Positions 1,528-19,333 of a DNA stretch of 22,554 nt are shown in pieces; position 1 is the stretch's first letter, and every line of letters starts with the position of its first letter. The position numbers were made by a program, and so were the translations under genes. The notes beneath the pieces were generated by a model. That model saw nothing but the letters and a program-made list of their open reading frames with translations, ran no database searches and was not told where the DNA came from. Source of the stretch: Lachnospiraceae bacterium UBA3863 (GTDB lineage Bacteria; Bacillota; Clostridia; Lachnospirales; Lachnospiraceae); assembly GCA_002392385.1 (NCBI GenBank), contig DGGX01000057.1:1-22554 (forward strand). Reading direction: 5' to 3'.

Positions 1528-1985
1528 CAGGTGCTGTGGACAACCCGGAAGGTTGTCGGCGAGAGTTTGGGGTGATAGTTCAGGTGCTGCGGTCAACCCG
1601 GAAGGTTGTCGGCGAGAGTTTGGGGTGATAAGCCAGGTGCTGTGGTCAACCCGGAAGGTTGTCGGCGAGAGTTTGGGGTGATAGTTCAGGTGCTGCGGTC
1701 AACCCGGAAGGGTGTCGGCAAGTGTTTGGGGTGACTTACAGGTGCCAGTATCAACCCAAATAGAATTGAAGTTACTATCTGGGTTGAGAACAAGTCACGC
1801 GAGTCATCCCGCATGACACTAGAAGACAGAATGGGTTGAGAACAAGTCTACGCGAGTCATCCCGCATGACACTAGAAGACAGAATGGGTTGAGAACAAGT
1901 CACGCGAGCCATCCCACATGTTATCAGCAGACAGAATGGGGTGGGAGCAAGGGCCAGACAGGTCGCCCCAGGACGGAATCACACA
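1528..1985 (+). repeat. Tandem array of about nine ~53-bp units with central inverted repeats
   Basis: Aligning on the core GTCA(A/T)CCC places units at 1539 (GACAACCC), 1592, 1645, 1698, 1750, 1803, 1856, 1908 and 1962, i.e. steps of 52-54 bp. Units 1-4 are near-identical GC-rich copies (type A). Units 6-7 are near-identical to each other (type B), while units 5, 8 and 9 are degenerate. Each good unit has a small hairpin at the same place: GACAACC/GGTTGTC in unit 1 (one mismatch in units 2-3) and GTCAT/ATGAC in type B. TCAACCCA (1751-1758) and TGGGTTGA (1780-1787) form a perfect 8-bp inverted repeat at the A/B boundary. The region lacks a supported gene. Function is unknown. Confidence 0.85.
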
Positions 1986-2005
1986 TCGGCAGAGGTCCTG
2001 CCGGG

Positions 2006-2014
2006 AAAGGAGAG
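2006..2014 (+). promoter_or_regulatory. Ribosome binding site that fixes the start of the first L,D-transpeptidase
   Basis: AAAGGAGAG lies 4 bases before the ATG at 2019. An in-frame ATG at 1941 has no comparable site and would add 26 residues ahead of the signal peptide, inside the degenerate last repeat unit. The start at 2019 puts the basic MRRKR segment at the N-terminus, as expected for a secreted protein. Confidence 0.85.
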
Positions 2015-2018
2015 ACGG

Positions 2019-3974
2019 ATGAGAAGGAAGCGTTCTCCGGGAAACAGAGCGGTAAGGCTCCTGGCTGTGGTTCTTGCCGCCTTTCTTTCTGTAAGCGCTC
2101 CTGCGGCCGTTCTTGGGGCGGAGGAGACCGGACAGGAGGCTGTGCAGGAGCCTGCCGGTCAGTCGCAGGGCGCCGAAGAGAAGCAGAACGAGCAACCCGC
2201 CGTCACGACTGAAGGTGTTTCTGAAACAAAGACAGAAGAACCCGAAGTCACGACGGAAAACGTTACGGAAGGCACAACCGAAGCAGCTCCCGCCGTCACG
2301 ACGGAAGGACAGTCTGAGGGCACGACGGAAAGCGCGCCTCAGATAACGACGGAAGGAGAATCTGAAGGTACGACCGAGGGGCAGTCCGAAGTCACGACGG
2401 AAGGACCTTCTGAAATTATTACAGAAGGAGGATCCGAGGGCACGACCGAAGAGACGCCTGGGGAAGAGGTTTCGGAAGCGACGACAGAAGTCACGGACGC
2501 TTCCATGACCGCGTCTGCGCAGGAGGAAGCGTACGCCGGCGACTGGGTGAAGAGCGGCAAGAAGTGGAGATTTCTCCTGCCGGACGGCGCTTATGCCAGA
2601 AACAGGTTCGTGACGGTCGACGGCGAGATCTATTATCTGGATGCCAAGGGTTACATGAAGACCGGCTGGATCACCGTGGGCAAGAGGAAATACTATGCCC
2701 GCGGGAGCGGCGCCATCCAGAGGGGCTGGAAAGACTTCCGGGTCACTGAAAAGATCAACGGCAAGAATCAGAAAGTCACGCGCTATTATTATTTCGGCCC
2801 TGCCACGGGAGTGATGAACACCGGCTGGCGGACCATCGGCGGCAAGTATTATTACTTCACTTCCGACGGGAAGAACCAGAAGAGCACCGGCTGGAAGAAG
2901 ATCAGCGGGAAATGGTACTACATGCAGAAGGACGACGACGGGCATATCTGCGCGGCTGTCGGCTGGAAGCAGGTCAAGGACAGCAAGAAGGTCCTGCGCT
3001 GGTATTATCTGGAGCCTTCGAAGGAACTGCACGGCAGGATGAAGACGGGCTGGTTTACGGAAGAGGGCAAGACTTACTACTTCAACAGCAGCGGCGCGTC
3101 GGTGAAGGCCGTACAGACGATCAATAAGAAGAAATATCTGTTTATCAATGAGGACGGCCGGGGCGTTCTCGCCACCGGGAGCGGGCCCACCGTGATCGAT
3201 GGAAGGACCTATTATTTCGGCAGCGGCAACGCGCTGAGGACCGGCTGGATCACAGAGAACGGCAAGACCTATTACTATTGGAGCCACATGGCTACGGGCT
3301 GGAAGAAGATCAGCGGGAGCTGGTACTACTTCAACGGCGACGGAGAGAGGCAGACCGGCTGGCTGACGCTCAGCGGCAAGACCTATTACCTGCAGCCCGG
3401 CAAGAATGGGGCCATGGTCACGGGCTGGAAGACCATCGGCGGGGCCAGATACTATTTCAAGGGCGGCGGCGCTATGGCGGTCAATACCGTCGTGGATGGC
3501 ATGAAGCTGGGTGCGGACGGCAAGATGACCGGTCCGGCACCGGATGCCATGGACAGGAAGGCCCAGGGCTACAGCTCCTCCACCCGGTATCTGATCCTGG
3601 TCAATCGGAGCACCCACAAGGTGTCCGTCTATCAGGGCTCCAAGGGCAAGTGGACCCGGGTGAAGCGGTGGAGCTGCGGAGACGGCGCCAGGGCCACGCC
3701 GACACCGGAGGGGACCTTCAAGGTCGGCATCAAGCTCAAATATTTCGACACAGCGGCCAATAACCGCTGCTGGTATGCCACCCAGTTCTGGGGCGATTAC
3801 CTCTTCCATTCGATCCTGTATGTGAAGTCCGGCTCGCCATCCAAGGTGAGGGGCAGCACCTCTTCACAGCTGGGCCGGGCCGTGTCCCACGGGTGCGTGC
3901 GGCTCACCCTGGACAACGCCAAGTGGATCTACAACAATATCCCTTCGGGGACCAAGGTGGTCGTCTACCACTGA
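2019..3974 (+). CDS. Secreted L,D-transpeptidase (YkuD) with cell-wall-binding repeats
   Basis: The 651-residue product begins with a signal peptide (basic MRRKR, hydrophobic core to about residue 32, likely cleaved after VLGA). A Thr/Glu-rich linker with repeated TTEG motifs runs to about residue 170. About a dozen GW...YYF choline/cell-wall-binding type repeats (CW_binding_1 family) fill ~175-515. The last ~125 residues are a YkuD L,D-transpeptidase domain with the conserved His (H597, LFHSILY) and the catalytic SHGCVRL motif (H624, C626, R628). Such enzymes make 3-3 cross-links between meso-diaminopimelate residues or attach proteins to peptidoglycan; the repeats should hold it on the wall, possibly by choline or a wall glycopolymer. 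It is a paralogue of the next gene. It carries its own terminator and appears monocistronic. Family assignment is firm; the natural substrate and the repeat ligand are inferred. Confidence 0.93.
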   Translation: MRRKRSPGNRAVRLLAVVLAAFLSVSAPAAVLGAEETGQEAVQEPAGQSQGAEEKQNEQPAVTTEGVSETKTEEPEVTTENVTEGTTEAAPAVTTEGQSEGTTESAPQITTEGESEGTTEGQSEVTTEGPSEIITEGGSEGTTEETPGEEVSEATTEVTDASMTASAQEEAYAGDWVKSGKKWRFLLPDGAYARNRFVTVDGEIYYLDAKGYMKTGWITVGKRKYYARGSGAIQRGWKDFRVTEKINGKNQKVTRYYYFGPATGVMNTGWRTIGGKYYYFTSDGKNQKSTGWKKISGKWYYMQKDDDGHICAAVGWKQVKDSKKVLRWYYLEPSKELHGRMKTGWFTEEGKTYYFNSSGASVKAVQTINKKKYLFINEDGRGVLATGSGPTVIDGRTYYFGSGNALRTGWITENGKTYYYWSHMATGWKKISGSWYYFNGDGERQTGWLTLSGKTYYLQPGKNGAMVTGWKTIGGARYYFKGGGAMAVNTVVDGMKLGADGKMTGPAPDAMDRKAQGYSSSTRYLILVNRSTHKVSVYQGSKGKWTRVKRWSCGDGARATPTPEGTFKVGIKLKYFDTAANNRCWYATQFWGDYLFHSILYVKSGSPSKVRGSTSSQLGRAVSHGCVRLTLDNAKWIYNNIPSGTKVVVYH

Positions 3975-7483: not shown

Positions 7484-10400
7484 ATGAAGAAAAGAGCTAT
7501 ATCCATCCTTTTGGCAATCGTCATGACCATGTCGCATGCCGCTGTCCTGTACGCGCAGGAAGACACTGCGCCTGCGGCAATGGAAGAAGCGGCAGAGCAG
7601 GCGGAAGAGCCTGCCGCAGAGAAGGAGGCGGAGCCTGCGCAGGAGCAGAAACCGGCACAGGAGCCGGTCCAGGAAACGCCGCAGGAACCGGTGCAGGAGG
7701 TAGTGCCTGCTGCCGGCCAGGAGACGGATGTTACAGAAGAGGCTGAGGAGCCTGCTCCGGAGGCGCCCGCCGCGGAGGAGGCCGGCCAGACCGAGCTTGA
7801 AGAAGAGACAGTAGAAACGACTGTCACCGAGCAGACGGAGATCGTGGAGGAGGAGACCGAGGAGACGACTGCCGCGGATCTTCCTGTGCTGTCTCCCGCC
7901 GGTCAGTCTTACAGGCCCGGCGGCAGCACGGACCCGGACGAGCTCTTCGCGTCCTATTTTGAGAACGCCATGAAGGGCGGCCCGTCCTCGGGCAGGAAGC
8001 TTCTGAAGAAGAGCGCGGCGAGCAGGCTCTCGGGCATGAACCTGGCGCTCTATGGAAAGATCATGGAGCAGATCCCCCTGATCGCCAGCGGCGAAAGGGC
8101 CTCCACGGTCATCGAGATCCCGGTGGAAGAGCTAGTGGGACAGGACAGATGGACAGCTCAGGAACTGGGCGTGGAGACGATCTTCGCGGACGGGGCCTTC
8201 ACAGAGGAGGCACTGGCGGCTGTCGACAGCAAACTCAGCTATGACCTGAGCCTGCTCATCGATGTGCTCCTGGCGGAGAATCCCTACCAGATGTACTGGT
8301 ATAACAAGACAGCCAGCACAGGGACGACTATGCCCGATTACGTGGGCGGGGTCGATGAGAACGGTGAACAGTATATTGAATGTCAGGGAAATATCACGAT
8401 CTCCTTCCCGGTCGTGTCAAAATACGCAGCAGGGGAGTATACCGTCAACACAGAGATCGGCAGCAGCGTCGGATCGACGGTGACCGCGGCCCATGAGATC
8501 GTGGATCAGTATGCCGGCGCCACCGACTACGAGAAGCTTATCGGCTATAAGAACGAGATCTGCAGCAGAGTCAACTACAACCATGCCGCCGTGGATGAGA
8601 ACCAGGAGTACGGTGATCCCTGGCAGCTGATCTGGGTCTTTGACGATGATGCCTCTACGGACGTGGTCTGCGAGGGTTATTCCAAGGCCTTTAAATATCT
8701 GTGCGACCTCTCTTCCTTCTCCGGCAATGTCAGCTGCATCACCGTGACCGGCAATATGGACGGCGGCACGGGAGCGGGCGGCCATATGTGGAACATGGTC
8801 TCCATGCCCGACGGTCAGAACTATCTCGTGGATGTGACCAACTGCGACGACGGCAGTATCGGCGCGCCGGACCTGCTGTTCCTGGCCGGCACGACAGATA
8901 CCATAGAGGCTGACGGCCTCCAGACAGGCTATACCCTGCACCCGGACGGTGCGGACATCCACTATACCTATGACAGAGGCGACGCTACAGGCAGCAGCTC
9001 CGATATGTTCGCTGTTTTTGACGCCGCCGATCTGATGATCGCCGGATATAATTATAATTCCGCCGGCGATGAGCCTGTTGTGCACACGCACACGCTCACA
9101 GAAAATCCCGGGGCAGAGCCCGACTGCTGGAACGAAGGCATGATCACCTACTGGGTCTGCGACGAATGCGGGAAGATCTTCCGGGATGCTGCGGGAGAAG
9201 AAGAGATCACCATGGAGGACACGGTCCTGCCGCGGACACATGTGCTGGTCCATGAAGAGGGCCTGACGGTCGACGGGACTGCGGAATACTGGTACTGCGA
9301 GAACTGTGGCAGCATCTTCCTCGATGCGGAGGGCCTCTATGAGACAGAACTGGCGGAGACCATCATGGCGGAGGACCTGTATGTCTCCCTGCCCGACGAT
9401 CTCTATGTGGGCGATGAGAAGCCGGCCCTGGTGACGATCCTGCCGGAGGACGCGACAGACAAGTCCGTGACCTTTGATTTCATAGACGAGAGTATCGCGG
9501 AGGCTTACCGCGGCGATGACGGTCTGTATTATATCCGTGCCCTGCGGGCAGGCACCACGGATGTCGATGTGTATACCAATGACGGGTCTGACCTCTTATG
9601 GGAGGGTACGCTTACCGTCCATGGGGAGACCAGCGCGTGGCTGAATGACTTTTATGCGGAGTACGATCAGTACGACGATGCGATCTCCCTGTATTCCTAC
9701 CAGGGAGAAGGGACTGACATCCTGATCCCCGACAGCGGCATACTGGACGGCATCGAATCCGACAGGATCCGCGTCAATCATGGTGTTTTTCCTGCCGGTA
9801 TCCGTTCTCTGACCCTGGAGCCCGGCGTGCTCCTGCCGGATGTCTGCGAGGGAGCCTTCCAATACTTCGCAGAACTGGAAGAGCTGCATCTGGCCGGCCT
9901 GGATGTCACGGGACGTACGGACATGTCGCAGATGTTCGAGGGCTGCGAGAGCCTCCGGACCCTCGACCTGACCGGCTGGGACACCCGTGATGTGGTCAAG
10001 ATCACCCGGATGTTCAAGGGCTGCAGCAGTCTGGAGGAGCTGGATCTGAGCGGCTTCGATCTCTCCTCTGTAGCCGGTGTGAATGAAGATGTTCTGGCCG
10101 GCATGGACGCCCTCCGCGTGATCCGGGCGCCCCTGCACCTGAAGAAAGAGATCGCCCTTCCTGCCGTGTTCAGCACACCGGACGGAGAGCTCGTCACAAC
10201 GCTCCCGCTGAATCTCTCGGAGAGCATCACCCTCACCTATGACCATCCCCTGGATGCGAGTGAGACCACGGTGAAGGAGGCTAAATGGAAGATCTCCGGC
10301 AAGGGCTCCAGCCTGACCCTGACCTTCTACGGAAACGGCTCCCTGAAGGGAATCAACCCCAATAAGGTTCCCTGGAAGTCCAAGAATGACAAGATCATCA

Positions 10401-13144
10401 AGATCGTGTTCGAAAACGGCGTCACCGACATGGGAGATCTGCAGTTTTATTACCTCAGGAATCTGCAGACGGTGCAGATCGGCTCCGGCATCCAGGTGAT
10501 CAACCCCGCCGCTTTTGGCATGTGCTCTAAGCTCAAGACCGTCAAGCTGTCTCAGGGCCTGAAGGAGATCAGAGAATCGGCCTTCATGGACTGCACCGGG
10601 CTCAAGACCATTACCCTGCCGGAAGGTATCGAGATGATCGGCGAGTATGCTTTCTCCTATGCCGACAACCTGACCGCCATTAATCTGCCGGACAGCCTGG
10701 AGGCCATCGGAGAAGGTGCCCTGATGGGCACACAGATCCAGAAAGCGGTCATTCCCGACTCGATCACCCGGATCTCAGACTCTCTGTTCTGGGGCTGCAG
10801 GAAGCTGCAGAGTGTAACGATCCCGGATACGGTCACCCATATCGGTAACAGTGCCTTCGGTGAGTGCACGGCCCTTCCCGGTATCGACCTGCCTGCAGAC
10901 CTGCAGGAGATCGGCTCTGGCGCTTTTGCCAACTGCCCGAAGATCAAGGGCTATACCCTTCCTGCCGGGACCAGGAAGATCGGCGAGAATGCCTTTGAGG
11001 GAGGATATACCGGCTATCTGGTGCTTCCCGCGGGCCTTGAGCAATTCGACGGCCAGGAGCCCGGCCTCGTCTACAGGGGCAACATCTACTACGGAGGCTC
11101 CAGGGCACAGTTCGATCAGCTTTTCGAAAAGATGGCGTCTTACTATGGCAGCATGGAGGATTTCGAGGACAATTTCCGCATCTTCTGCGGCATCAGCACC
11201 ATCATCCCCGCAGAGAGCCTGTCCGTGGAGCTGCCTGACCTGGTGGACTATGAAGCGACAGACGGACCCTTCACGGCGGAGATCGGACCCTACTATGCCA
11301 CCTGCCGGGATATGACCCTGGAGAGCAGCGATGAAGACATCCTCTCTCTTTCTGAGGAGGCAGACGGCTGGTACATGAGCGGCATGGAGGACGGCTGGGT
11401 CCGGGTCACAGCCACTGTCAACGACGGCTCCGGCGTCAGCTATTCCAAGATCATCCGCGTGTCGGGCAACGAAGCCTACGCCAGGAACAAGTTCACGGTA
11501 GTCTTCAACGCCAACGGCGGCACCGGCAAGATGAGTAATCAGACCGGTATTCCCTACAAGAACGGCAAGGCGCTGACAGCCAATGCCTTTAAGCGCAAGG
11601 GCTACCGCTTCACCGGCTGGAACACCCGCAAAGACGGCACCGGCCTGGCCATCGCCAACAAGGGCGTGGCTAAAGAGCTCACAAGGACCAACAACGGCAA
11701 GGTCACACTCTACGCCCAGTGGGAGCTGATCGATTACACGATCACCTACAACCTGAACGGCGGCACCAATAACGAGAACAATCCCGCCGCCTACACCGTT
11801 CTGGACGCGGTCACGCTGCAGAAGCCTGTTCGCGAGAACTACGTCTTCAGCGGCTGGTACACCGACAAGAAGTGTAAGACCAAGGCCGGCAACATCAAGA
11901 AGGGCACCACCGGCAACAAGACCTACTACGCCAAGTGGACCCCCAACAAGTATAAGATCACCTTTGTTAAGAACGGGGCCACAGGCGGTAAGATGTCCGA
12001 CATGACCGGCATCGCCTTCAATGCAGAGAAGACCCTGACGGGCAACGCCTTCAGCCGCAAGGGCTATAAGTTCGTCGGCTGGAACACGGTACAGAATCCC
12101 ACGGAAGAGAACCCCGGCGAAGCCTATACTAACAAATGTAAGGTCAAGGGCCTGTCTATGGATAACGGGGCTACGGTCAAGCTCTACGCCCAGTGGCAGC
12201 TCATTGACTACAAGATCACCTACAGCCTGAACGGCGGCACCAACAGCGAGGAGAATCCGGCGACCTACCAGGTCGTCACCGATACCATCACCCTGAAGAG
12301 CCCCACCCGCACCGGCTACACCTTCTCCGGCTGGTACAGCGACAAGAAGTTCAAGACCAAGGTGACGGCCATCAAGAAGGGCAGCACCGGCAACAAGACC
12401 TTCTACGCCAAGTGGACAGCCAATAAGTACAAGGTGGCCTTCGACAAGAATGATCCGGAAGCCACCGGCACCATGAAGATCCAGACGCTGACCTATAACA
12501 ACAGCGCCAAGCTGACGGCCAACGCCTTTAAGAAGAGGGGCTACACCATGACCGGGTGGAACACGATGCCTGACGGGACCGGTACCGCCTATGCCAATGC
12601 CCAGGCCAAGCCCAACGTCACCCCCAACAAGGGTGAGACAGTGACCCTCTACGCACAGTGGAAGCTGACCAACTACAAGATCAACTACAATCTGCCTTCG
12701 GGCGCGGTCAACAACGAGCTGAACCCCGCCACCTATACCATGGACGATCCCACCTTTGAGATCCAGGCACCCAGCCGTCCCGGCTATGATTTCGTCGGCT
12801 GGTACACGGACGCCAAGCTCACAAAGGCAGCGAAGCTGACCATCGAGAAGGGCTCCACAGGTAATAAGACCTTCTATCCCAAGTGGAGGGCACACAAGTA
12901 TACGGTAGTGTTCGACAAGAACGATCCGGACGCCAAAGGGACCATGAAGGAACAGAATCTTACCTACGGCAGCAGTCAGACACTGACCAAGAACGCCTTC
13001 ACCAAGGCGGGCTATACCTTCGTCGGCTGGTCCACCCAGGCGGACGGCAGCGGCGATACCCGCAAGAACGGGGCCAAGGCCGCCAACCTGACGACGGAAG
13101 ACAACGGAGTAGTCACCCTTTTCGCCCAGTGGAAGAAGAAGTAA
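7484..13144 (+). CDS. Giant secreted protein: transglutaminase-like, BspA-type LRR and Flg_new repeats
   Basis: The 1886-residue product starts with a signal peptide (MKKRAISILLAIVM, cleavage near LYAQ, ~25) and a Glu/Pro/Ala-rich linker to ~140. A transglutaminase-like domain follows at ~320-470 with a plausible Cys-His-Asp triad: C396 (VVCEGYSKAF), H434 (GGHMWNM) and D450 (LVDVTNC). Next come two short modules with CxxC pairs (C559/C562 and C605/C608) and the YW-C--CG-IF-DA pattern, a Big-like segment, DUF285/BspA-type leucine-rich repeats (~765-1190) and seven Flg_new (Listeria-Bacteroides) repeats (~1336-1886). The start is preceded by AGGGGAT. There is no LPXTG sorting motif or C-terminal membrane anchor; it ends QWKKK. 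The LRR and Flg_new parts suggest adhesion, and the N-terminal domain could cleave or cross-link peptides. Only 36 bp without a terminator separate it from the ATP-grasp gene, so it may be co-transcribed. Domain calls are strong; the function is inferred. Confidence 0.9.
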   Translation: MKKRAISILLAIVMTMSHAAVLYAQEDTAPAAMEEAAEQAEEPAAEKEAEPAQEQKPAQEPVQETPQEPVQEVVPAAGQETDVTEEAEEPAPEAPAAEEAGQTELEEETVETTVTEQTEIVEEETEETTAADLPVLSPAGQSYRPGGSTDPDELFASYFENAMKGGPSSGRKLLKKSAASRLSGMNLALYGKIMEQIPLIASGERASTVIEIPVEELVGQDRWTAQELGVETIFADGAFTEEALAAVDSKLSYDLSLLIDVLLAENPYQMYWYNKTASTGTTMPDYVGGVDENGEQYIECQGNITISFPVVSKYAAGEYTVNTEIGSSVGSTVTAAHEIVDQYAGATDYEKLIGYKNEICSRVNYNHAAVDENQEYGDPWQLIWVFDDDASTDVVCEGYSKAFKYLCDLSSFSGNVSCITVTGNMDGGTGAGGHMWNMVSMPDGQNYLVDVTNCDDGSIGAPDLLFLAGTTDTIEADGLQTGYTLHPDGADIHYTYDRGDATGSSSDMFAVFDAADLMIAGYNYNSAGDEPVVHTHTLTENPGAEPDCWNEGMITYWVCDECGKIFRDAAGEEEITMEDTVLPRTHVLVHEEGLTVDGTAEYWYCENCGSIFLDAEGLYETELAETIMAEDLYVSLPDDLYVGDEKPALVTILPEDATDKSVTFDFIDESIAEAYRGDDGLYYIRALRAGTTDVDVYTNDGSDLLWEGTLTVHGETSAWLNDFYAEYDQYDDAISLYSYQGEGTDILIPDSGILDGIESDRIRVNHGVFPAGIRSLTLEPGVLLPDVCEGAFQYFAELEELHLAGLDVTGRTDMSQMFEGCESLRTLDLTGWDTRDVVKITRMFKGCSSLEELDLSGFDLSSVAGVNEDVLAGMDALRVIRAPLHLKKEIALPAVFSTPDGELVTTLPLNLSESITLTYDHPLDASETTVKEAKWKISGKGSSLTLTFYGNGSLKGINPNKVPWKSKNDKIIKIVFENGVTDMGDLQFYYLRNLQTVQIGSGIQVINPAAFGMCSKLKTVKLSQGLKEIRESAFMDCTGLKTITLPEGIEMIGEYAFSYADNLTAINLPDSLEAIGEGALMGTQIQKAVIPDSITRISDSLFWGCRKLQSVTIPDTVTHIGNSAFGECTALPGIDLPADLQEIGSGAFANCPKIKGYTLPAGTRKIGENAFEGGYTGYLVLPAGLEQFDGQEPGLVYRGNIYYGGSRAQFDQLFEKMASYYGSMEDFEDNFRIFCGISTIIPAESLSVELPDLVDYEATDGPFTAEIGPYYATCRDMTLESSDEDILSLSEEADGWYMSGMEDGWVRVTATVNDGSGVSYSKIIRVSGNEAYARNKFTVVFNANGGTGKMSNQTGIPYKNGKALTANAFKRKGYRFTGWNTRKDGTGLAIANKGVAKELTRTNNGKVTLYAQWELIDYTITYNLNGGTNNENNPAAYTVLDAVTLQKPVRENYVFSGWYTDKKCKTKAGNIKKGTTGNKTYYAKWTPNKYKITFVKNGATGGKMSDMTGIAFNAEKTLTGNAFSRKGYKFVGWNTVQNPTEENPGEAYTNKCKVKGLSMDNGATVKLYAQWQLIDYKITYSLNGGTNSEENPATYQVVTDTITLKSPTRTGYTFSGWYSDKKFKTKVTAIKKGSTGNKTFYAKWTANKYKVAFDKNDPEATGTMKIQTLTYNNSAKLTANAFKKRGYTMTGWNTMPDGTGTAYANAQAKPNVTPNKGETVTLYAQWKLTNYKINYNLPSGAVNNELNPATYTMDDPTFEIQAPSRPGYDFVGWYTDAKLTKAAKLTIEKGSTGNKTFYPKWRAHKYTVVFDKNDPDAKGTMKEQNLTYGSSQTLTKNAFTKAGYTFVGWSTQADGSGDTRKNGAKAANLTTEDNGVVTLFAQWKKK
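11491..13141 (+). repeat. Seven alternating Flg_new-type coding repeats (A-B-A-B-A-B-A)
   Basis: Two repeat types alternate at the C-terminus of the giant protein. Type A has V-F--N----G-M, NAF--GY-F-GWNT and VTLYAQW. Type B has ITYNLNGGTN, NPA-Y, GY-FSGWY-D, KKG(S/T)TGNKT and YAKW. Type A units begin near 11491, 11946, 12424 and 12895, giving a super-repeat of about 455-478 bp. The array ends the protein on a type A unit. Confidence 0.85.
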
Positions 13145-13180: not shown

Positions 13181-14371
13181 ATGAAGAAATTACTCATTCT
13201 GGGGGCGGGCATTTATCAGGTGCCCCTGATCAAAAAAGCAAAGGAAATGGGTCTGTATACGGTCGTCACCAGCATGCCGGGCAATTATCCCGGCTTCGCG
13301 CTGGCGGACAAGGTGTACTATGAGGACACGACGGATCTGGAGGCCGTACGCAGGATCGCCGAGCAGGAAGGCATCGCCGGCGTCGTGACGGCCGGAACGG
13401 ATGTCTGCGTGCCGACTCAGGGCTACCTGTGCGACACGCTGGGGCTCAGGGGACCGACCCTGGAGGCGGCGGAGAAGGCGCAGTCCAAACGGCTTATGAA
13501 GCAGGCCTTCCGGGAGTACGGCGTGAACACGGCACCTTTTATCTCGGTGCCGATGGACAATGAGGATCCGCGGGAGGTCTGTGAAGAGATCGGCTATCCG
13601 GTCATCGTGAAGGCCATCGACTCCTCCGGGAGCCGGGGGATCACGAGGGTGAACGGGCCGGAGGACCTGCCCCTGGCCTACCGGGAGGTGCGGAGCTGCA
13701 CACGGGCCGATACCTACCTGATCGAGAAGTTCCTGGTGGGAGAGGAGTTCGGCGCCCAGGCTTTTGTCTATGACGGGACGATCCGCTTCATCCTGCCCCA
13801 CGGAGACTACGTGTTCCAGGGGAGCACGGGCGTGCCGATCGGACATTTTGCCCCCTATGAGGTTTCTGAGGAGATCCTGGCCCAGAGCCGCGAGCAGCTG
13901 CAGAAGGCCGTCACGGCCATGGGCGTGGACAACTGCGCCATCAACGCCGATTTCATCCTGTGTGACGGCGTGCCCTATGTGCTGGAGATCGGCGCAAGGT
14001 CAGGCGCCACCTGTCTGGTGGAGATGACGGAGCAGTATTACGGTATCGATTATTATAAGCAGATCATCCGCTGCAGTCTGGGCGAGGAGCCGGACTTCAC
14101 GCCCGGCAACGACAAGAGGCAGCCCTGTGTGGTCATGCTGCTGCGCTCGGACGAGAGCGGGGTGATCGAGTCCGTGGATATGGGAGAGCAGACGGATCCC
14201 CGCGTTCTGGATCTGTCGCTGGATTATAAGGTCGGCGAGGAGATCCGGGCCTTCCGCAAGGGACCGGACCGGATCGGACAGTGCGTTGTGATTGCTGACA
14301 GCGTGGAGGAAGGGAAGAGGATCCTGGACGAGGCGCTTAGCAAAGTAAAGATTGAACTGAGGAAGAACTGA
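13181..14371 (+). CDS. ATP-grasp carboxylate-amine/thiol ligase family protein
   Basis: This 396-residue cytoplasmic enzyme has a Rossmann-like N-terminal domain (LLILGAGIYQVPLIKKA), an ATP-grasp fold with the nucleotide-binding strand GYPVIVKAIDSSGSRGI (from G138), and the LIEKFLVGEEFG and NADFIL...LEIGARSGAT segments (E269) expected to bind ATP and Mg. ATP-grasp enzymes of this PurK/CarB-like type activate a carboxylate as an acyl phosphate and join it to an amine or other nucleophile. AGAAGG precedes the ATG. It is 36 bp after the giant protein gene and 13 bp before the adenylate-forming enzyme. Context suggests a ligase that adds an amino acid or small acid to an envelope precursor. The fold is secure, the substrate is not known, and it does not look like purine or carbamoyl-phosphate enzymes proper. 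Confidence 0.88.
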   Translation: MKKLLILGAGIYQVPLIKKAKEMGLYTVVTSMPGNYPGFALADKVYYEDTTDLEAVRRIAEQEGIAGVVTAGTDVCVPTQGYLCDTLGLRGPTLEAAEKAQSKRLMKQAFREYGVNTAPFISVPMDNEDPREVCEEIGYPVIVKAIDSSGSRGITRVNGPEDLPLAYREVRSCTRADTYLIEKFLVGEEFGAQAFVYDGTIRFILPHGDYVFQGSTGVPIGHFAPYEVSEEILAQSREQLQKAVTAMGVDNCAINADFILCDGVPYVLEIGARSGATCLVEMTEQYYGIDYYKQIIRCSLGEEPDFTPGNDKRQPCVVMLLRSDESGVIESVDMGEQTDPRVLDLSLDYKVGEEIRAFRKGPDRIGQCVVIADSVEEGKRILDEALSKVKIELRKN

Positions 14372-14384
14372 AGGAGGAACAGGC

Positions 14385-15728
14385 ATGTCGTACAGTATGG
14401 ACAAGAAGCTGGAGAACATCTGGTATTTTCCCACGGATATGACCAAGGTCTACCGCAAGGTGCCCAAGGATCCCGCCAAGGTCAAGGCGATCCAGGACAG
14501 GAAGGTGCATGAGCTCATGCTCATCGCCTATGATATTCCCTTCTACCGCGCCCGCTTCGAGCAGTCGGGCACGACGCCGGAGGATTATCACAGCGCGGAA
14601 GACCTCTACAAGTTCCCCGTGCTGACCAAGGACGCTCTCCGGGACTGGTCCAATGAGGAGCTGGAGAAAAATCCCGAGAAGTACAAGGACTGGCATGTTT
14701 CGCCTACCAGCGGTTCCACGGGCATCCCGCTGAAGACCCCCTTCTCCCCCAGAGAGAATGCCATGGCCCACGCCAACTTCATGCGGTCCGTCATGATGGC
14801 GGGCTTCATTCCCGGCGTCCATAAGTGTATGCACAGGCCCAACAGCCTGCACGTGGTGACAGGCGGCAAGATGAGCCTGACCCAGAAGATCATCCAGACC
14901 CGCTGGAGAGATATGTCCGACGCCATCAAGAACAGGGTCCCTTCGGACGTCCTGCTCAAGGAGATCAACGACTTCAAGCCGGATTTCCTCTACATTCACA
15001 AGAACATCATGGTCCGGATCTGCCTCTATGCCAAGAGAAACGGGCTCTACATCCATCGTCCCAAGTGGTACGCGCCCATCAGTGAGATGCTGGACGCCTC
15101 CAGTGAGAAGCTCCTGCGGGAGATGCTGGGCGACGGCCTGATCAACCCCTACGGCCTCTCTGAGACGGGCACGGCGGCTGTGCGTCTGCCGGGAGATGAT
15201 TTCTTCCGCGTCAACAGCGACACCCATGTGCTGAATGTCTATGACGATGACGGTCAGCCCGCGGACAACGGCGTGGCGGTGATCACCCCCCTCTATAAGA
15301 CTGATTTCCCGCTTATCAACTATGTGGCCGGCGACAGGGTGGAGTCCCACATCGAGAACGGCCTCCGCATCATCACCACGGTCAAGGGCCGTGCCAACGA
15401 CGTGATCCGCCACAAGGACGGCAGCGTGACGGAGTGGGGCAACCTGGAGATCCACATCAACTATGCCAGCGGTCTCGGCATCGCCCAGAGCCGCTTCATC
15501 CAGGAGAGCTTCGACCGGATCCGGATCCAGTGCGTCAAGGATCCCGCCTGCGGCAAGACCAACGAGGAGATCGAAGAGGCCTTCACGGCCATTTTTGCCC
15601 CGGCCCTCAACAACGAGTTCACCCTGGAGTATGAGTGGATGGACGAGATCCCCATGGATCCCAACGGCAAGCTTCGCATGATCGTCTGCAACATCCCCGA
15701 GGAGGAGCTGAAGGCACATGCTGAATAA
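14385..15728 (+). CDS. CapK/PaaK-like adenylate-forming enzyme
   Basis: This 447-residue cytoplasmic protein belongs to the phenylacetate-CoA ligase/CapK branch of the ANL superfamily. Visible motifs are the phosphate-binding loop SPTSGSTGIPLK (S106-K117), the YGLSETG motif (Y256-G262, E260) that contacts AMP/Mg, and a short C-terminal domain with PNGKLRMI, whose K429 sits at the usual catalytic lysine position. Such enzymes adenylate a carboxylic acid and pass the acyl group to CoA or another acceptor. Family members called CapK are found in polysaccharide clusters. AGGAGG-like sequence precedes the start, and its last 11 bases overlap the next gene, so the two are translationally coupled. 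The substrate cannot be read from the sequence, and true phenylacetate degradation is unlikely because no paa genes are nearby. Confidence 0.88.
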   Translation: MSYSMDKKLENIWYFPTDMTKVYRKVPKDPAKVKAIQDRKVHELMLIAYDIPFYRARFEQSGTTPEDYHSAEDLYKFPVLTKDALRDWSNEELEKNPEKYKDWHVSPTSGSTGIPLKTPFSPRENAMAHANFMRSVMMAGFIPGVHKCMHRPNSLHVVTGGKMSLTQKIIQTRWRDMSDAIKNRVPSDVLLKEINDFKPDFLYIHKNIMVRICLYAKRNGLYIHRPKWYAPISEMLDASSEKLLREMLGDGLINPYGLSETGTAAVRLPGDDFFRVNSDTHVLNVYDDDGQPADNGVAVITPLYKTDFPLINYVAGDRVESHIENGLRIITTVKGRANDVIRHKDGSVTEWGNLEIHINYASGLGIAQSRFIQESFDRIRIQCVKDPACGKTNEEIEEAFTAIFAPALNNEFTLEYEWMDEIPMDPNGKLRMIVCNIPEEELKAHAE

Positions 15729-16155
15729 GTTTCTGGACAACCAACGCAATGTATATATCCTGGCGATCCTGGCCATCGTCTTCGAGAGTCTGTCTTCATC
15801 GGTGCTGAAGTTCAGCAAGGACTATGCCTTCCTCTCCCCCATGTACCTCTTCTGGTTCGTGGTGGCGGTGGGGATCATGGGCCTCTACGCCATTGCCTGG
15901 CAGCTCCTGCTGGAGCGGGTGCCCCTGACCACGGCCTACCTGCGCAAGGGCCTGACCTATGTGCTGATCTTCATCTGGGCAAGGGTCTTCTTCCATGAGG
16001 AGATCAGCGTGAAGCAGATGATCGGCATGGCCATCATCATCGCCGGCATGATCATCAGCATGTCCGGGGATATGCACGGCGACACCGCGGACAGCGGAGA
16101 GCCGGCTGCGGACGGCGCCCAGGCCCCTGCGGCCTCCGGCGGAAAGGAGGTGTGA
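15718..16155 (+). CDS. SMR-like four-helix membrane protein, first of a pair (Glu-containing)
   Basis: The 145-residue product has four predicted membrane helices followed by a polar Asp/Ala/Gly-rich tail of ~30 residues. It resembles small multidrug resistance proteins: the first helix, AIVFESLSSSVLKFS, aligns with the EmrE AILAEVIGTTLMKFS segment and keeps the membrane glutamate (E23, eight residues before the lysine). The third- and fourth-helix segments LTTAYLRKGLTYV and MIGMAIIIAGM also match the family. The start overlaps the end of the ligase gene by 11 bp. Next to a second SMR-like gene it probably forms a heterodimer, either an exporter or a lipid-carrier flippase like ArnE/ArnF. The tail is longer than usual for SMR proteins, and part of it doubles as the ribosome binding site of the next gene. 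Confidence 0.85.
   Translation: MLNKFLDNQRNVYILAILAIVFESLSSSVLKFSKDYAFLSPMYLFWFVVAVGIMGLYAIAWQLLLERVPLTTAYLRKGLTYVLIFIWARVFFHEEISVKQMIGMAIIIAGMIISMSGDMHGDTADSGEPAADGAQAPAASGGKEV
16143..16152 (+). promoter_or_regulatory. Strong Shine-Dalgarno inside the end of the first SMR gene
   Basis: AAAGGAGGTG is a ten-base, near-complete complement of the 16S rRNA tail, placed 6 bases before the ATG at 16159. It also encodes the last codons (GKEV) of the upstream protein, whose stop at 16153-16155 lies between this site and the next start. This supports tight coupling of the two SMR-like genes. Confidence 0.9.
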
Positions 16156-16158
16156 CCT

Positions 16159-16509
16159 ATGGAATTCACACCAGCATTCTGCTACGCCATCGCTTTTGTC
16201 GCGGTCTTCATCGCCACCGCCGGCCAGATCCTGCTGAAGAAACAGGCCGGCACCACGAAGGACAAGGGATTCCTCAGCAAGTTTCTGAACATCCGCGTGA
16301 TCGCGGCCTACGGCATGCTGTTCCTGTCGCTCTTCATGAATCAGATCGCCCTCAAGGAGGTGCCTGTCTCGGTACTGCCCTGCATCACCTCCACCAGCTT
16401 CATCTGGGTGTTTCTGTTCGGGATCCTGATCCTGCGGGAGAAACCGGGCCCCAGAAAGATCCTGGGAGTGGCCCTGATCCTGCTGGGCAATGCCATATCG
16501 AGGCTGTAA
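16159..16509 (+). CDS. SMR/ArnE-like four-helix membrane protein, second of a pair (Glu replaced)
   Basis: The 116-residue product has four predicted membrane helices and the size of an SMR/ArnE protein. The first helix IATAGQILLKKQAG resembles ArnE (SVAGQLCQKQA), and later segments LKEVPVSVLP and ILGVALILLGNAI fit the family. The position of the essential SMR glutamate, eight residues before K27, holds alanine (A19). It therefore cannot be a standard proton-coupled SMR pump on its own. With the upstream partner, which keeps its glutamate, it suggests an asymmetric heterodimer such as the ArnE/ArnF undecaprenyl-phosphate-sugar flippase. It sits between the ligase genes and a large membrane protein, which fits transport of a lipid-linked or small modified intermediate. 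Fold is fairly firm; the cargo is unknown. Confidence 0.83.
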   Translation: MEFTPAFCYAIAFVAVFIATAGQILLKKQAGTTKDKGFLSKFLNIRVIAAYGMLFLSLFMNQIALKEVPVSVLPCITSTSFIWVFLFGILILREKPGPRKILGVALILLGNAISRL

Positions 16510-16532
16510 GCAACTGACAGGGGGGGATAATT

Positions 16533-18338
16533 ATGAACAAAAACGACAGTATCCTTGCAAGCTGCACCCGGTATCTGGGCGCGGCGATCGTGCTGTTCTG
16601 CGGCTTTCTGACAGGACGGTTCACGGTAGACTATCCTAAACACACGGAGATTGCGGGGACCCTGGACCTGGCGCATCCGCTGGCCACCTTCCGGGAACAC
16701 GTGGAGCCCCTGTGGCATCTGTGCCTGCGCGGCATTCAGGCCGTCCTGCACTGCTCGCCACAGTCCGCCGGCGCCCTGGTCTCCGGCCTGGCCCTGGCGG
16801 TCTCCTACCTGATCGCCTGGCATGCCCTCCGCAGAGCCGTGCGGAGCGCCTCGGCCCTGCAGGTGACGGCCCTCTGCCTGGTCCTCCACCTCTGCGCCGC
16901 CATCTACGTTCCCTGGTTCAATGAGCACCCCTATCTGGGACAGGGCACCCCGAACGTATGGCATAATCCCACCCTGATCATGCTCCGGCCCATCGCCCTC
17001 CTGGCCTTCCTTCTGACTGCCTGGCAGCTCCAGAAGATCAAGGACAGCGGCTATGAGAAGAGCCTGTCCCCCATCGTCGGCATCCTGATCGCCATCCTGC
17101 TGGTCTTCGCCAACCTGGCCAAACCTTCCTACGCCCAGGTCTTCTATCCGGCGATCTTCCTTCTGATGCTGGGCTGGCTGGCCGCCTCCAAGGGCAAAGC
17201 CTGGAAGCACTGCCTGCAGTTCTTCTTCATGTGCCTGCCCTCTGTCATCCTGATGGCCTTCCAGCTGGTCTTCACCTTCCTGCGGGGAGGCGCTGAAGGC
17301 CAGGGCGCCGGACAGGCGGGCGGCATCATGATCGCCCCCCTGCAGGCGGCAAGCATCCACACAGACTCCATCCTGATCTCCACCCTCCTGGCCCTGGCCT
17401 TCCCTCTCTTCATGGCCCTGGTCACCCTGATCCGGCGCCGCTTCCGCCAGAGAGAGATCCTGGCCTGGCTCCTCCTTCTCACCGGCCTTCTGGAGAAGCT
17501 CCTGCTGGCCGAGACCGGCAACCGCATCGGCGACGGAAACTTCGGCTGGGGCTACCTGACTGCCCTCCTGATCGTCTGGTTCGTCAGTATCCGTGATTAC
17601 GCGGATGCCTTCCTCGTCGCGGAGGCCACCGTCAAGCCCGACACCCCCACCATCGCGGTGGAGGCCGCGCCAACCGTCTCAGAAGCCGGCACATCCGCCG
17701 GCGAGGCCGTCGGTACCGCCGCACAGTCCGTATTCGGATCTGTAGCGTCCGCCGTCGGAGCGGGTGAGGGTGCCACCGGTGCCGCCATGAAGCCGGAGAC
17801 CGCGGCTGCGGCAGCGTCTGCGGAAGCAATGCCTGCGGGTACTCTGTTTGAAGATGCCGCGAACCATGAAGACATTCCCGCCGCGACTGTGCCGGTCCTG
17901 GAATTCACCGAAGAGAGCCCGGTGATGCCGGACAGTGCCGCAGAGCCTGCGCCTGAACGGACCTTCCCTGTGCCTTCTGAGGAAGACGTCCATGCCGCGG
18001 AGCCTGTATCAATGACTCATCCTGTTCCTGTATCGATGACAGAGCCTGTTCCTGCATCGATGACGCACCCCGTGCCGGCAGAGGCGCCCATGTTTGCGGA
18101 GGAGCCCGCGCCTGCGGAGACGCCCGAACCGATGGCGGAGACCTCTGTGACAGAAGAGACCGCCGTGCCGGCGGATGCCGCCGAGACCGCGCCCGCCAAG
18201 GGAGGCGTCAAGGACTTCTTCATCCGCACCTTCCGGGGGATCGGTTTCGCTATCTCTTCCGTGATCCTGGCGGCCCACTTCGCGTCCGGCCTCTTCTACC
18301 TGGTCTATTGGCTGCTTCTGAAGGGAAATAAGATCTGA
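16533..18338 (+). CDS. Polytopic membrane protein, GT-C/polymerase-like, with long low-complexity insert
   Basis: The 601-residue protein has roughly eight to ten hydrophobic segments in residues 10-362, a ~190-residue Ala/Pro/Glu/Thr-rich, probably disordered region (363-555), and one last hydrophobic helix (SSVILAAHFASGLFYLVYWLL) near the C-terminus. A GGGGGG-type ribosome binding site precedes the ATG. After the first helix is a likely outer loop with acidic and His residues (DYPKHTE, D33-E39; D45). Another conserved-looking loop reads GTPNVWHNPT, and QETGNR-like ETGNRIGDGNFGWG precedes a late helix. This layout resembles GT-C glycosyltransferases or Wzy-type polymerases that use lipid-linked donors, but I do not recognise a defined family. 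The low-complexity region contains three 8-residue repeats (SMTxPVPx). In context it may use the product flipped by the SMR pair. The catalytic role is inference. Confidence 0.8.
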   Translation: MNKNDSILASCTRYLGAAIVLFCGFLTGRFTVDYPKHTEIAGTLDLAHPLATFREHVEPLWHLCLRGIQAVLHCSPQSAGALVSGLALAVSYLIAWHALRRAVRSASALQVTALCLVLHLCAAIYVPWFNEHPYLGQGTPNVWHNPTLIMLRPIALLAFLLTAWQLQKIKDSGYEKSLSPIVGILIAILLVFANLAKPSYAQVFYPAIFLLMLGWLAASKGKAWKHCLQFFFMCLPSVILMAFQLVFTFLRGGAEGQGAGQAGGIMIAPLQAASIHTDSILISTLLALAFPLFMALVTLIRRRFRQREILAWLLLLTGLLEKLLLAETGNRIGDGNFGWGYLTALLIVWFVSIRDYADAFLVAEATVKPDTPTIAVEAAPTVSEAGTSAGEAVGTAAQSVFGSVASAVGAGEGATGAAMKPETAAAAASAEAMPAGTLFEDAANHEDIPAATVPVLEFTEESPVMPDSAAEPAPERTFPVPSEEDVHAAEPVSMTHPVPVSMTEPVPASMTHPVPAEAPMFAEEPAPAETPEPMAETSVTEETAVPADAAETAPAKGGVKDFFIRTFRGIGFAISSVILAAHFASGLFYLVYWLLLKGNKI

Positions 18339-18351
18339 GGAAGGAAAGACG

Positions 18352-18807
18352 ATGCAACCGGTGATTACAGTACTATCCAACAAGATACTGCAGACAGGCG
18401 CCGCCGCCTGGGCCATCGCCCAGGTCCTGAAGATACTGATCCATGCCGCCGTGCACCGGAAGCTGGTGTGGGAGCGGCTGATCGGCGACGGCGGTATGCC
18501 CAGCAGCCATTCGGCCACGGTCACGAGCGTGGCGGTGACGACCGGGGTCCTTCAGGGATGGGACAGTCCGATATTCGCTGTAGCTGCCATCTTGGCCATC
18601 ATCGTGATGCACGACGCCATGGGCGTGCGCCGGGAGACCGGCAAACAGGCCATCGCCATCAACGATATCATCGATCACATCCTTGCGGATGACGCAGTAG
18701 ACCTGTCACCGGAGAAGGCCCTGAAGGAATTTGTGGGCCACACACCTTTACAGGTGGCGGCCGGAGGCGTCCTGGGCCTGGTCGTGGCAGTGGTTATGAA
18801 TTTGTGA
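18352..18807 (+). CDS. DUF212/YuiD family PAP2-related membrane protein
   Basis: The 151-residue protein matches the size and motifs of the DUF212 family (Bacillus subtilis YuiD), described as divergent PAP2/haloperoxidase-related. Key motifs are GDGGMPSSHSATVTS (residues ~44-58) and MHDAMGVRRETGKQA (~84-98), with several hydrophobic helices between and after. PAP2 enzymes remove phosphate from lipid phosphates; a role in recycling polyprenyl phosphate is possible here but unproven for this family. GGAAGGAAAG precedes the ATG, 13 bp after the previous gene. It is the last gene of the run, and a long hairpin follows 38 bp later. DUF212 genes also occur away from such clusters, so its link to the pathway is uncertain. 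Confidence 0.88.
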   Translation: MQPVITVLSNKILQTGAAAWAIAQVLKILIHAAVHRKLVWERLIGDGGMPSSHSATVTSVAVTTGVLQGWDSPIFAVAAILAIIVMHDAMGVRRETGKQAIAINDIIDHILADDAVDLSPEKALKEFVGHTPLQVAAGGVLGLVVAVVMNL

Positions 18808-18845: not shown

Positions 18846-18906
18846 AAATCCGCCCTTCTGGAGGTCGTGAAGGATGCTCATGACCTCCAGAAGGGCGGAT
18901 TTATTA
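18846..18906 (+). terminator. Perfect 21-bp hairpin, probable terminator of the six-gene run
   Basis: The arms 18846-18866 and 18882-18902 are exactly complementary over 21 bp (AAATCCGCCC...GGGCGGATTT), with a 15-base loop. The stem ends in AAA/TTT and is followed by ATTAATG rather than a pure T-tract. It lies 38 bp past the last stop codon. A short direct repeat AAGATTC (twice) sits just before it. Confidence 0.75.
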
Positions 18907-18920
18907 ATGCTCGTGTCAGT

Positions 18921-19333
18921 CGTTATTTTCGCTGTGAAATAAGCCTGATATCACAGAGAAGATAACGTTTCTCCTGCCAGTCGTTATTTCCGCTGTGAAA
19001 TATGCCTGATATCACAGAGAAGATAACGTTTCTCCTGCCGGTCGTTATCTCCGCTGTGAAATTTGTCTTATTTCACGGTGAGAATAACGTTTCTCCTGCC
19101 GGTCGTTATTTCCGCTGTGAAATTAGCCTGATTTCACAGAGAAGATAACGTTTCTCCTGCCGGTCGTTATTTCCGCTGTGAAATTTGTCTTATTTCACGG
19201 TGAGAATAACGTTTCTCCTGCCGGTCGTTATTTCCGCTGTGAAATTTGCCTTATTTCACGGTGAGAATAACGTTTCTCCTGCCAGTCGTTATCTCCGCTG
19301 TGAAATATGCCTGATATCACGGCAATAATAACG
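18921..19333. repeat. Seven tandem 61-bp palindromic units between converging genes
   Basis: Units start at 18921, 18982, 19043, 19104, 19165, 19226 and 19287, an exact 61-bp period. Each has a ~47-nt imperfect palindrome (outer arms CGTTAT/ATAACG, inner arms CTGTGAAAT/AT(T/A)TCAC) and, except the last, a nearly constant 14-nt linker, TTTCTCCTGCC(A/G)GT. Right arms fall into classes: CACAGAGAAGATAACG in units 1, 2 and 4; CACGGTGAGAATAACG in 3, 5 and 6; a variant in 7. The loop is ~7 nt (TTGTCTT, TAGCCTG and others). The period is not a multiple of three, so it is not coding. It fills 18808-19381 together with the hairpin; the remaining ~48 bp before the ABC gene show only a weak CCCAC/GTGGG pairing. 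Confidence 0.93.

What the first reader, a model, noticed from the sequence alone, without database searches (positions are those of the whole stretch)
13181..18807. Candidate undescribed envelope-modification operon: ATP-grasp, CapK-like ligase, SMR pair, GT-C-like protein, DUF212
Six genes with gaps of 3-36 bp or overlaps combine two different carboxylate-activating enzymes with an ArnE/ArnF-like pair, a polytopic membrane protein with polymerase/glycosyltransferase traits and a PAP2-related protein. The logical reading is: activate an acid, join it to a carrier or sugar, flip it, transfer it outside, recycle the lipid. I do not recognise this gene set as a named pathway.
Basis: partly seen in the sequence, partly recalled or inferred. 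Interest (0 to 1): 0.7.

Follow-up and report, generated by a model that had tools for sequence, protein, structure and literature searches.

The report
Acylated amino-sugar surface-decoration gene cassette
Six adjacent genes of a gut bacterium look like half of a machine that builds an unusual amino sugar on a membrane lipid, appears to cap it with an acid or amino acid, flips it outward and attaches it to the cell surface; the other half sits elsewhere in the same genome, and the whole set recurs in many related gut bacteria.

The parts
13181..14371 (+). ATP-grasp ligase with LAL_C2 domain ('type A'); proposed to acylate (aminoacylate) the 4-amino sugar
   Evidence: Pfam; closest solved structure 4dim, 260 bits, then BacD alanine-anticapsin ligase; in 43 of 46 core loci an ATP-grasp match follows the GT2 match on the same strand within 339 bp; 13 of 13 genomes with a close relative have WecE
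14385..15728 (+). CapK/PaaK-like adenylate-forming enzyme; proposed second acylating enzyme
15718..16155 (+). SMR-type protein 1 (ArnE/ArnF-like flippase subunit)
   Evidence: Pfam EamA and Multi_Drug_Res above cut-off; ArnE model below cut-off; a Wzx-like protein stands in other loci instead
16159..16509 (+). SMR-type protein 2 (ArnE/ArnF-like flippase subunit)
   Evidence: Pfam EamA above cut-off; ArnE model below cut-off; found with SMR1 in 28 of 28 loci that have either
16533..18338 (+). GT-C-fold membrane protein with a lineage-specific low-complexity stretch; proposed Und-P-sugar-dependent transferase
18352..18807 (+). DUF212 (divergent PAP2) membrane protein; probably co-transcribed passenger or lineage-specific addition
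   Evidence: Pfam 160.8 bits; in 1 of 80 CapK loci only, the sibling species
18851..18897 (+). Intrinsic-terminator-like hairpin after the operon
   Evidence: 20-pair stem, tail GATTTATTAA (3 sites found, 3.8 expected in shuffles, so only the stem length argues for it)

Best explanation
The six genes are the acylation, flipping and transfer half of a lipid-linked amino-sugar decoration pathway whose synthesis half (WecE, ArnC/GtrB-like GT2, RmlA, GtrII-like GT-C) lies on another contig. Inferred order: RmlA and RmlB make dTDP-4-keto-6-deoxyglucose; WecE turns it into dTDP-Fuc4N; GT2 loads the sugar on undecaprenyl phosphate; the ATP-grasp and the CapK-like enzyme acylate the 4-amine (most simply, ATP-grasp adds an amino acid and CapK a second acid, before or after loading); the SMR pair flips the lipid; a GT-C protein (gene 5, GtrII or YfhO type) moves the sugar to a surface acceptor, probably a wall polymer. 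Shown: gene content, conservation, folds, co-occurrence and the swaps. Inferred: substrates, order, acceptor.
For: (1) Genus-mate locus L070 has WecE-GT2-ATPgrasp-CapK-SMR-SMR-RmlA-GtrII together; the window's genome has the other half on contig C3 (WecE 65% and GT2 42% identical to the L030 queries; order; the C3 GT-C candidate is 46% identical to L070's GtrII). The sibling genome G180 shows the same split. (2) C3's aminotransferase passes NCBIfam's cut-off for the WecE equivalog (610.9 against 375) and its RmlA passes (456.5 against 360.65); RmlB beside the operon in L030 and L203 passes as well. (3) 46 of 80 CapK loci have GT2 and ATP-grasp; 31 of the 46 have WecE, 33 YfhO. (4) One genome per genus, 150 genomes, own genome counted: strong ATP-grasp 13 of 13 with WecE against 36 of 137; CapK 7 of 7; gene 5 7 of 7 (without the own genome 12 of 12 and p 4e-7, 6 of 6 and p 9e-4). 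(5) Flippase swap: SMR pair 28, Wzx-like 24, both 0, neither 28, of 80. (6) Acylation swap: a GNAT follows WecE in 18 of 22 evaluable sister-clade loci, 0 of 15 in the window clade, 0 of 80 CapK loci; its one NCBIfam match at 1e-10 is PseH, an N-acetyltransferase for a 4-amino-4,6-dideoxy sugar, below cut-off (46.2 against 93.1). (7) Two ATP-grasp types alternate: 5 of 5 genomes with the window's type lack an ATP-grasp at the WecE locus, 9 of 10 without it have one there (p 0.002). (8) GT2 closest to solved sll0501 and ArnC; gene 5 GT-C.
Against: No biochemistry exists for either ligase here. The GNAT/ATP-grasp swap separates two clades of one genus and may be a single event; the alternation of ATP-grasp types may be few events. 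Four sister-clade loci have neither GNAT nor ligase between WecE and GT2. 36 of 137 genomes without the strong ATP-grasp have WecE, so WecE has other uses. The genome has two GT-C candidates (gene 5 and GtrII-like), so which one acts is open. It is a 73% complete bin with 4.4% contamination, so the link between contigs rests on the sibling species and L070.
Confidence: 0.72

Rival explanations
1. The same lipid-linked acylated amino sugar is made, but the acceptor is not a wall polymer: the GT-C enzyme glycosylates surface proteins or a glycolipid.
For: The best NCBIfam models for the GT2 (PgfS, 139.9 bits, cut-off 500) and for YfhO of L030 (PgfM1 92.2, PgfM2 89.7, cut-offs 1400 and 1500) are Streptococcus glycosyltransferases that I recall as protein glycosylation enzymes, all far below cut-off. 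The best structural matches of gene 5 include protein glycosyltransferases (OST, Pmt, PglB). A large surface protein gene lies 36 bp upstream of the operon.
Against: Fold and distant similarity do not reveal the acceptor. YfhO-type GT-C proteins, present in 36 of 80 loci, serve LTA or WTA glycosylation in Bacillus, Listeria and S. aureus (PMC8035078 and PMC7389260, passages). L,D-transpeptidase domains lie near 11 of 15 WecE loci of the window clade. The upstream surface gene is absent at this place in the sibling.
Confidence: 0.25
2. Only the ATP-grasp acts on the sugar amine; CapK belongs to a different pathway (for example a side-chain acid of a polysaccharide) and is often carried along.
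For: Seven of the 15 WecE loci read in the window clade have WecE-GT2-ATPgrasp-SMR-SMR without CapK (L202-L207, L217), with CapK elsewhere in those genomes. GT2 and ATP-grasp adjoin even where CapK does not.
Against: CapK (E up to 1e-20) is in 33 of the 34 sampled genomes of the window's clade and 0 of the other 27, and it lies between ATP-grasp and SMR in other genera. The clade pattern may be one event.
Confidence: 0.25
3. ATP-grasp and CapK make a small secreted pseudo-dipeptide and the SMR pair exports it or drugs; the neighbours are coincidental.
For: An ATP-grasp and an amide bond synthetase work in tandem in the fungal E-64 pathway (PMC12568646, abstract). SMR drug exporters match gene 3 about as well as ArnE does (33.4 against 35.9 bits).
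Against: The association with WecE and GT2 and the alternation of the SMR pair with Wzx-like proteins.
Confidence: 0.06

Closest known systems
Multi-component transmembrane glycosylation systems of Gram-positive bacteria (CsbB/GtcA/YfhO and kin)
   Same: Membrane GT2 that loads a sugar on C55-P, a flippase (GtrA- or Wzx-type in the review), and a GT-C transferase, YfhO among them (PMC8035078 and PMC7389260, passages).
   Different: Here the sugar is predicted to be a 4-amino-4,6-dideoxy sugar made by WecE, the flippase is an SMR pair or Wzx-like, and ATP-grasp and PaaK-type ligases are part of the set. The review text has no occurrence of 'ATP-grasp' or 'amino sugar'.
Arn (pmrHFIJKLM) lipid A aminoarabinose pathway
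   Same: DegT aminotransferase, ArnC-like GT2, SMR pair and GT-C (the Arn gene set itself is recalled).
   Different: The aminotransferase matches WecE far better than ArnB (NCBIfam 610.9 above cut-off against 191.4 below; solved chains 537 against at most 181 bits). The amine is not expected to be handled by ArnA formylation and ArnD deformylation (recalled, not searched) but by ATP-grasp/CapK, or GNAT in sister loci. Hosts are Bacillota and Eggerthellaceae.
Enterobacterial common antigen Fuc4N branch (RmlA, RmlB, WecE, then WecD N-acetylation; the branch is recalled)
   Same: RmlA, RmlB and WecE pass NCBIfam's cut-offs; a GNAT takes the acylation slot in the sister clade.
   Different: The sugar is predicted to be carried singly on Und-P for transfer outside rather than built into a repeat unit. 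WecD is not among the 26 solved sequences that the GNAT matched; its one NCBIfam match is PseH, below cut-off.
Tandem ATP-grasp and amide bond synthetase pathways (fungal E-64)
   Same: One ATP-grasp and one amide bond synthetase form two amide bonds in succession (PMC12568646, abstract).
   Different: Soluble inhibitor; no lipid carrier, flippase or glycosyltransferase in the abstract.

Membership tests
Multi-component transmembrane glycosylation system | Membrane-linked GT-A enzyme that makes a C55-P-sugar | tested here: met
   GT2 on contig C3 with predicted membrane segments, best solved matches sll0501 and ArnC, ArnC and PgfS models below cut-off; by homology, product not assayed
Multi-component transmembrane glycosylation system | Flippase for the C55-P-sugar | tested here: inconclusive
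   SMR pair or, in other loci, a Polysacc_synt (Wzx-like) protein, never both; ArnE/ArnF scores below cut-off
Multi-component transmembrane glycosylation system | GT-C-fold transferase | tested here: met
   Gene 5 GT-C by structure; YfhO in 36 of 80 loci; GtrII (PF14264) in L070 and L205; C3's own GtrII-like protein matches no Pfam family itself
Multi-component transmembrane glycosylation system | Transfers the sugar to a cell wall polymer | not testable with these tools
   Needs chemistry of the wall polymers
Arn pathway | ArnB-type aminotransferase | tested here: not met
   WecE 610.9 bits above cut-off, ArnB model 191.4 against a cut-off of 631
Arn pathway | ArnE/ArnF equivalogs | tested here: not met
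   ArnE 35.9 and 40.0 bits against a cut-off of 92; ArnF 31.3 and 22.4 against 99: works like, not a member
Arn pathway | ArnA formyltransferase and ArnD deformylase | not tested
   No dedicated search of the genome was made
GT-C superfamily | GT-C fold | tested here: met
GT-C superfamily | Acidic residue in the first outside loop | tested here: met
   D33 right after helix 7-30, invariant in 37 rows; catalytic role recalled, not shown
PaaK/ANL adenylating enzymes | ANL sequence motifs | tested here: met
   T108-S109-G110-S111-G113, Y256-G257-E260, G335-R336-N338-D339, N427-G428-K429-R431 invariant in 12 (motif meaning recalled)
PaaK/ANL adenylating enzymes | PaaK fold | tested here: met
L-amino-acid ligase (LAL) ATP-grasp | ATP-grasp plus LAL_C2 domains | tested here: met
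   PF18603 44.3 bits, PF13535 37.6 bits, both above cut-off
L-amino-acid ligase (LAL) ATP-grasp | Ligates an amino acid carboxylate to an amine | not testable with these tools
   Needs enzyme assay
WecE aminotransferase (contig C3 partner) | Passes the curated WecE equivalog cut-off | tested here: met
   NF008687 610.9 against 375, TIGR02379 613 against 434.85; 4piw 1.6e-160, next family (perosamine synthetase) 2.1e-54

The most novel reading that the evidence does not exclude
A previously undescribed kind of Und-P-sugar: a 4-amino-4,6-dideoxy sugar whose amine carries an acyl-amino acid (or dipeptide-like) cap built by two different carboxylate-activating ligases, exported by an SMR pair and used to decorate a surface polymer. 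The ligase set acts as an exchangeable cassette (two ATP-grasp types, or a GNAT) that can move between genera and sets the chemistry and antigenicity of the surface. In part of the lineage the cap might also be a ligand for the choline-binding-like repeats of neighbouring wall enzymes; this last part is only weakly supported.
Probability: 0.35. Interest if true: 0.8.

Novelty: new variant of a known kind. Interest (0 to 1): 0.62.

Why it matters
The envelopes of gut Lachnospiraceae and Oscillospiraceae are little known (my judgement). This gives a concrete, testable pathway that recurs in these families and in Eggerthellaceae, predicts a specific lipid intermediate, and offers a role for orphan CapK, ATP-grasp and SMR genes. 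If right, it adds an acyl-diversification step to the transmembrane glycosylation systems, a plausible source of surface variety towards phages and host immunity.

Tried and rejected
DUF212 as the lipid-recycling step: rejected as a conserved part (1 of 80 loci). SMR pair as drug exporter: disfavoured by the alternation with Wzx-like proteins. Cell-wall-binding repeats as readers of this sugar: genomes with the strong ATP-grasp are richer in PF19127 matches (9 of 13 with at least 10, against 34 of 137, p 0.002), but WecE shows no association (14 of 49 against 29 of 101, p 0.58) and 34 of 43 repeat-rich genomes lack the strong ATP-grasp, so no general link (the cut-offs for 'strong' and 'rich' were set by me after seeing the lists; one 'strong' genome, G105, has the gene in two pieces on two contigs).

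Co-occurrence inside the genus (CapK in 33 of 34 genomes of one clade, 0 of 27 others) was not used as independent evidence because it may be a single event; the per-genus sample is the main test. The 80 named loci are the best 80 of 212 confirmed relatives; many sit on short contigs, so presence counts are lower bounds. GT2 and ATP-grasp hits under 38% identity were dropped before the counts (53 loci with any GT2 hit became 48; ATP-grasp stayed at 50). GT2-to-ATP-grasp gaps are between matched stretches, not between annotated genes. The first ORF caller chose wrong frames in GC-rich loci and was replaced by a codon-based one, which in turn fails in AT-rich loci such as L032. A GNAT very unlike the L215 reference would be missed. 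Two sister-clade loci (L229, L231) were dropped as truncated from the GNAT count; in L240 the contig ends inside the GNAT, counted as present, so GT2 is not seen there. Foldseek alone gave no hit of gene 5 under E 0.001, and a profile of its family found nothing in PDB sequences up to E 1. Rfam (gathering scores) and tRNA scans were empty. Literature: nine answered searches showed, among the papers listed (up to 20 each; several searches had more hits than were listed), no title or abstract start on this gene set; only open-licence full texts are held.
Full report
WHAT IS THERE. The window is contig C84 of a 2.4 Mb, 252-contig, 73% complete genome bin; the named record of its sibling (L102, the same contig as G180:C57) is a Lachnospiraceae bin. 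The six genes lie as described, with gaps of 13, -11, 3, 23 and 13 bp, followed by a 20-pair terminator-like hairpin. Upstream lie two genes with choline-binding-type repeats and YkuD L,D-transpeptidase domains (the second YkuD match is below Pfam's cut-off) and a 1886-aa repeat surface protein that starts 187 bp after the second. In the sibling genome G180 the same order is kept (two transpeptidase genes, ATP-grasp, CapK, SMR, SMR, gene 5, DUF212) without the large surface gene.

THE OTHER HALF. Relatives of gene 2 in other genera sit with a DegT aminotransferase, a GT2 with membrane segments, an ATP-grasp, YfhO, and in places nucleotide-sugar genes, an SMR pair or a Polysacc_synt (Wzx-like) protein. 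Searching the window's own genome with two of those partners found the aminotransferase (65% identical) and the GT2 (42%) side by side on contig C3, followed by RmlA and a 575-aa membrane protein 46% identical to the GtrII-like protein of genus-mate locus L070 (L070's protein matches PF14264, the C3 protein itself no Pfam family). In L070 the order is WecE-GT2-ATPgrasp-CapK-SMR-SMR-RmlA-GtrII; in the window's genome WecE-GT2-RmlA-GtrII stand together and the middle block is the window's operon. G180 has the same split on C47 and C57. C3's aminotransferase passes NCBIfam's WecE equivalog cut-off (610.9 against 375 bits) and RmlA passes its own (456.5 against 360.65); RmlB from the operons of L030 and L203 passes too (487.1 and 493 against 365.1). 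I did not search for RmlB in the window's own genome. Solved WecE structures match at 537 and 531 bits, the next family at 188. The product is thus most likely dTDP-4-amino-4,6-dideoxygalactose (Fuc4N). The GT2 matches solved sll0501 (118 bits) and ArnC (96 bits), and the PgfS and ArnC models below cut-off.

HOW CONSERVED. A scan of the species-genome collection gave 212 relatives of gene 2, of which the best 80 were read. In these 80: GT2 48, ATP-grasp 50, YfhO 36, WecE 33, SMR1 28, SMR2 28, Wzx-like 24, RmlA 12, RmlB 11, gene 5 9, transpeptidase domain 9, GLF 4, DUF212 1, GtrII 1 (after dropping GT2 and ATP-grasp hits under 38% identity). GT2 and ATP-grasp join CapK in 46; 31 of these have WecE and 33 YfhO. 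In 43 of the 46 the ATP-grasp match follows the GT2 match on the same strand within 339 bp. The common order is YfhO-WecE-(gene 5)-GT2-ATPgrasp-CapK-SMR-SMR-RmlA-RmlB; in many Lachnospiraceae CapK and a Wzx-like gene face the YfhO-WecE-GT2-ATPgrasp run. Gene 5 homologs lie between WecE and GT2 in L104, L108, L111, L118 and L126, and beside WecE in L200. Three loci are Eggerthellaceae (L147-L149), so the system crosses phyla. The other 34 loci lack the pair; 20 of them belong to one 21-member CapK cluster, at least 13 of its members genus-mates, and others are on short contigs.

GENOME-LEVEL TEST. In 150 genomes drawn one per genus, the own genome among them, WecE (E up to 1e-100) is present in 49. 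All 13 genomes with a strong gene-1 relative have it, against 36 of 137 without (p 1.4e-7); all 7 with a strong CapK and all 7 with gene 5 have it as well (p 3e-4 each). Without the own genome these are 12 of 12 (p 4e-7) and 6 of 6 (p 9e-4). Of the 26 genomes with any gene-1 relative (E up to 1e-30) and WecE, 12 have the two within 11 kb, so the association does not rest on linkage alone.

SWAPS THAT POINT TO FUNCTION. First, the flippase: of 80 loci 28 have the SMR pair, 24 a Wzx-like protein, none both, 28 neither. Second, the acylating enzyme: the 61 sampled genus genomes split into 34 with WecE at or above 74% identity and 27 others, 25 of which have WecE at 58-68% and two none at E 1e-60. 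In 15 WecE loci read from the first clade no GNAT was found; ATP-grasp adjoins in 9. In 24 WecE loci read from the second, a GNAT (PF13302 in L215) follows WecE in 18 of 22 evaluable loci, in all but L240 (contig end) ahead of GT2. None of the 80 CapK loci has this GNAT. Its best solved matches are diamine/spermidine acetyltransferases, and WecD is not among the 26 listed; its one NCBIfam match at 1e-10 is PseH, the N-acetyltransferase for a UDP-4-amino-4,6-dideoxy sugar, below cut-off. Third, two ATP-grasp types alternate: all 5 evaluable genomes with the window's type lack an ATP-grasp beside WecE, while 9 of 10 without it have the other type there (exception L208, p 0.002). A GNAT, an ATP-grasp of type A and one of type B in the same slot next to a maker of an amino sugar is the main reason to read the ligases as N-acylating the sugar. 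The second and third patterns lie within one genus, so the number of independent events is small and the p values overstate the case.

CASSETTE EXCHANGE. In trees of 44 rows each, the window's CapK groups with G180 and a Clostridia locus (L103, 74% identical) and its ATP-grasp with G180 and an Oscillospiraceae locus (L107, 73%), both with starred support, not with other genus-mates (42-50% and 22-55% identical); the SMR proteins are, after G180, most like L107 (79%). L103 has the CapK nearest to the window's outside the genus but the other ATP-grasp type. This suggests that the block moves between genera and that ligases are mixed; transfer was not tested formally.

MECHANISM AND LIMITS. The proposed order is in the best explanation. 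Shown: genes, order, folds, co-occurrence, swaps. Inferred: the substrate of each ligase, whether acylation comes before or after loading on undecaprenyl phosphate, the direction of flipping, which GT-C acts (the genome has gene 5 and the GtrII-like protein), and the acceptor. A wall polymer is favoured because YfhO enzymes decorate LTA or WTA in Bacillus, Listeria and Staphylococcus (PMC8035078 and PMC7389260, passages read) and because transpeptidase domains lie near 11 of 15 WecE loci in the window clade (0 of 24 in the other; the stretches read differ in length). Against it, the nearest NCBIfam models of the GT2 and of YfhO are the Streptococcus Pgf glycosyltransferases, which I recall as protein-modifying; all are far below cut-off. 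Tandem use of an ATP-grasp and an amide bond synthetase has a precedent in the fungal E-64 pathway (PMC12568646, abstract).

NOVELTY. It works like the multi-component transmembrane glycosylation systems and, in outline, like Arn, but it fails Arn membership on two tested features. The review of the former, searched for terms, has no mention of ATP-grasp or amino sugar, and the papers listed by nine literature searches showed nothing on this gene set by title and abstract start (open-licence papers only). I rate it a new variant of a known kind.

Noticed in passing
18919-19333: 6.8 tandem copies of a 61-bp unit with internal palindromic parts just after the operon's terminator-like hairpin and before the converging ABC transporter genes; function not known.
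   Followed up: no
L058:4818-7883 (own genome, contig C3): Near WecE lies a 1021-aa protein with choline-binding-type repeats and a metallo-beta-lactamase domain like pneumococcal phosphorylcholine esterase Pce/CbpE (2bib 1e-33, repeats included; 1wra 2.9e-15), which hints at teichoic-acid decoration.
   Followed up: partly
1941-3974 and 4432-7296: Two L,D-transpeptidase-like genes with choline-binding-type repeats upstream of the operon; homologous catalytic regions lie near 11 of 15 WecE loci read in the same clade.
   Followed up: partly
7484-13144: 1886-aa surface protein with leucine-rich and Listeria-type repeats, 36 bp upstream of the operon; absent at this place in the sibling genome.
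   Followed up: no
1525-1951: Two tandem arrays of 53- and 52-bp units (4.0 and 3.3 copies) between the first gene and the first transpeptidase gene, reaching its annotated start.
   Followed up: no
L215:7734-9665, L214:6700-8445: Sister-clade WecE loci hold a 580-640-aa membrane protein between WecE and the GNAT or GT2 with no Pfam match above cut-off; perhaps another GT-C family, not modelled.
   Followed up: partly
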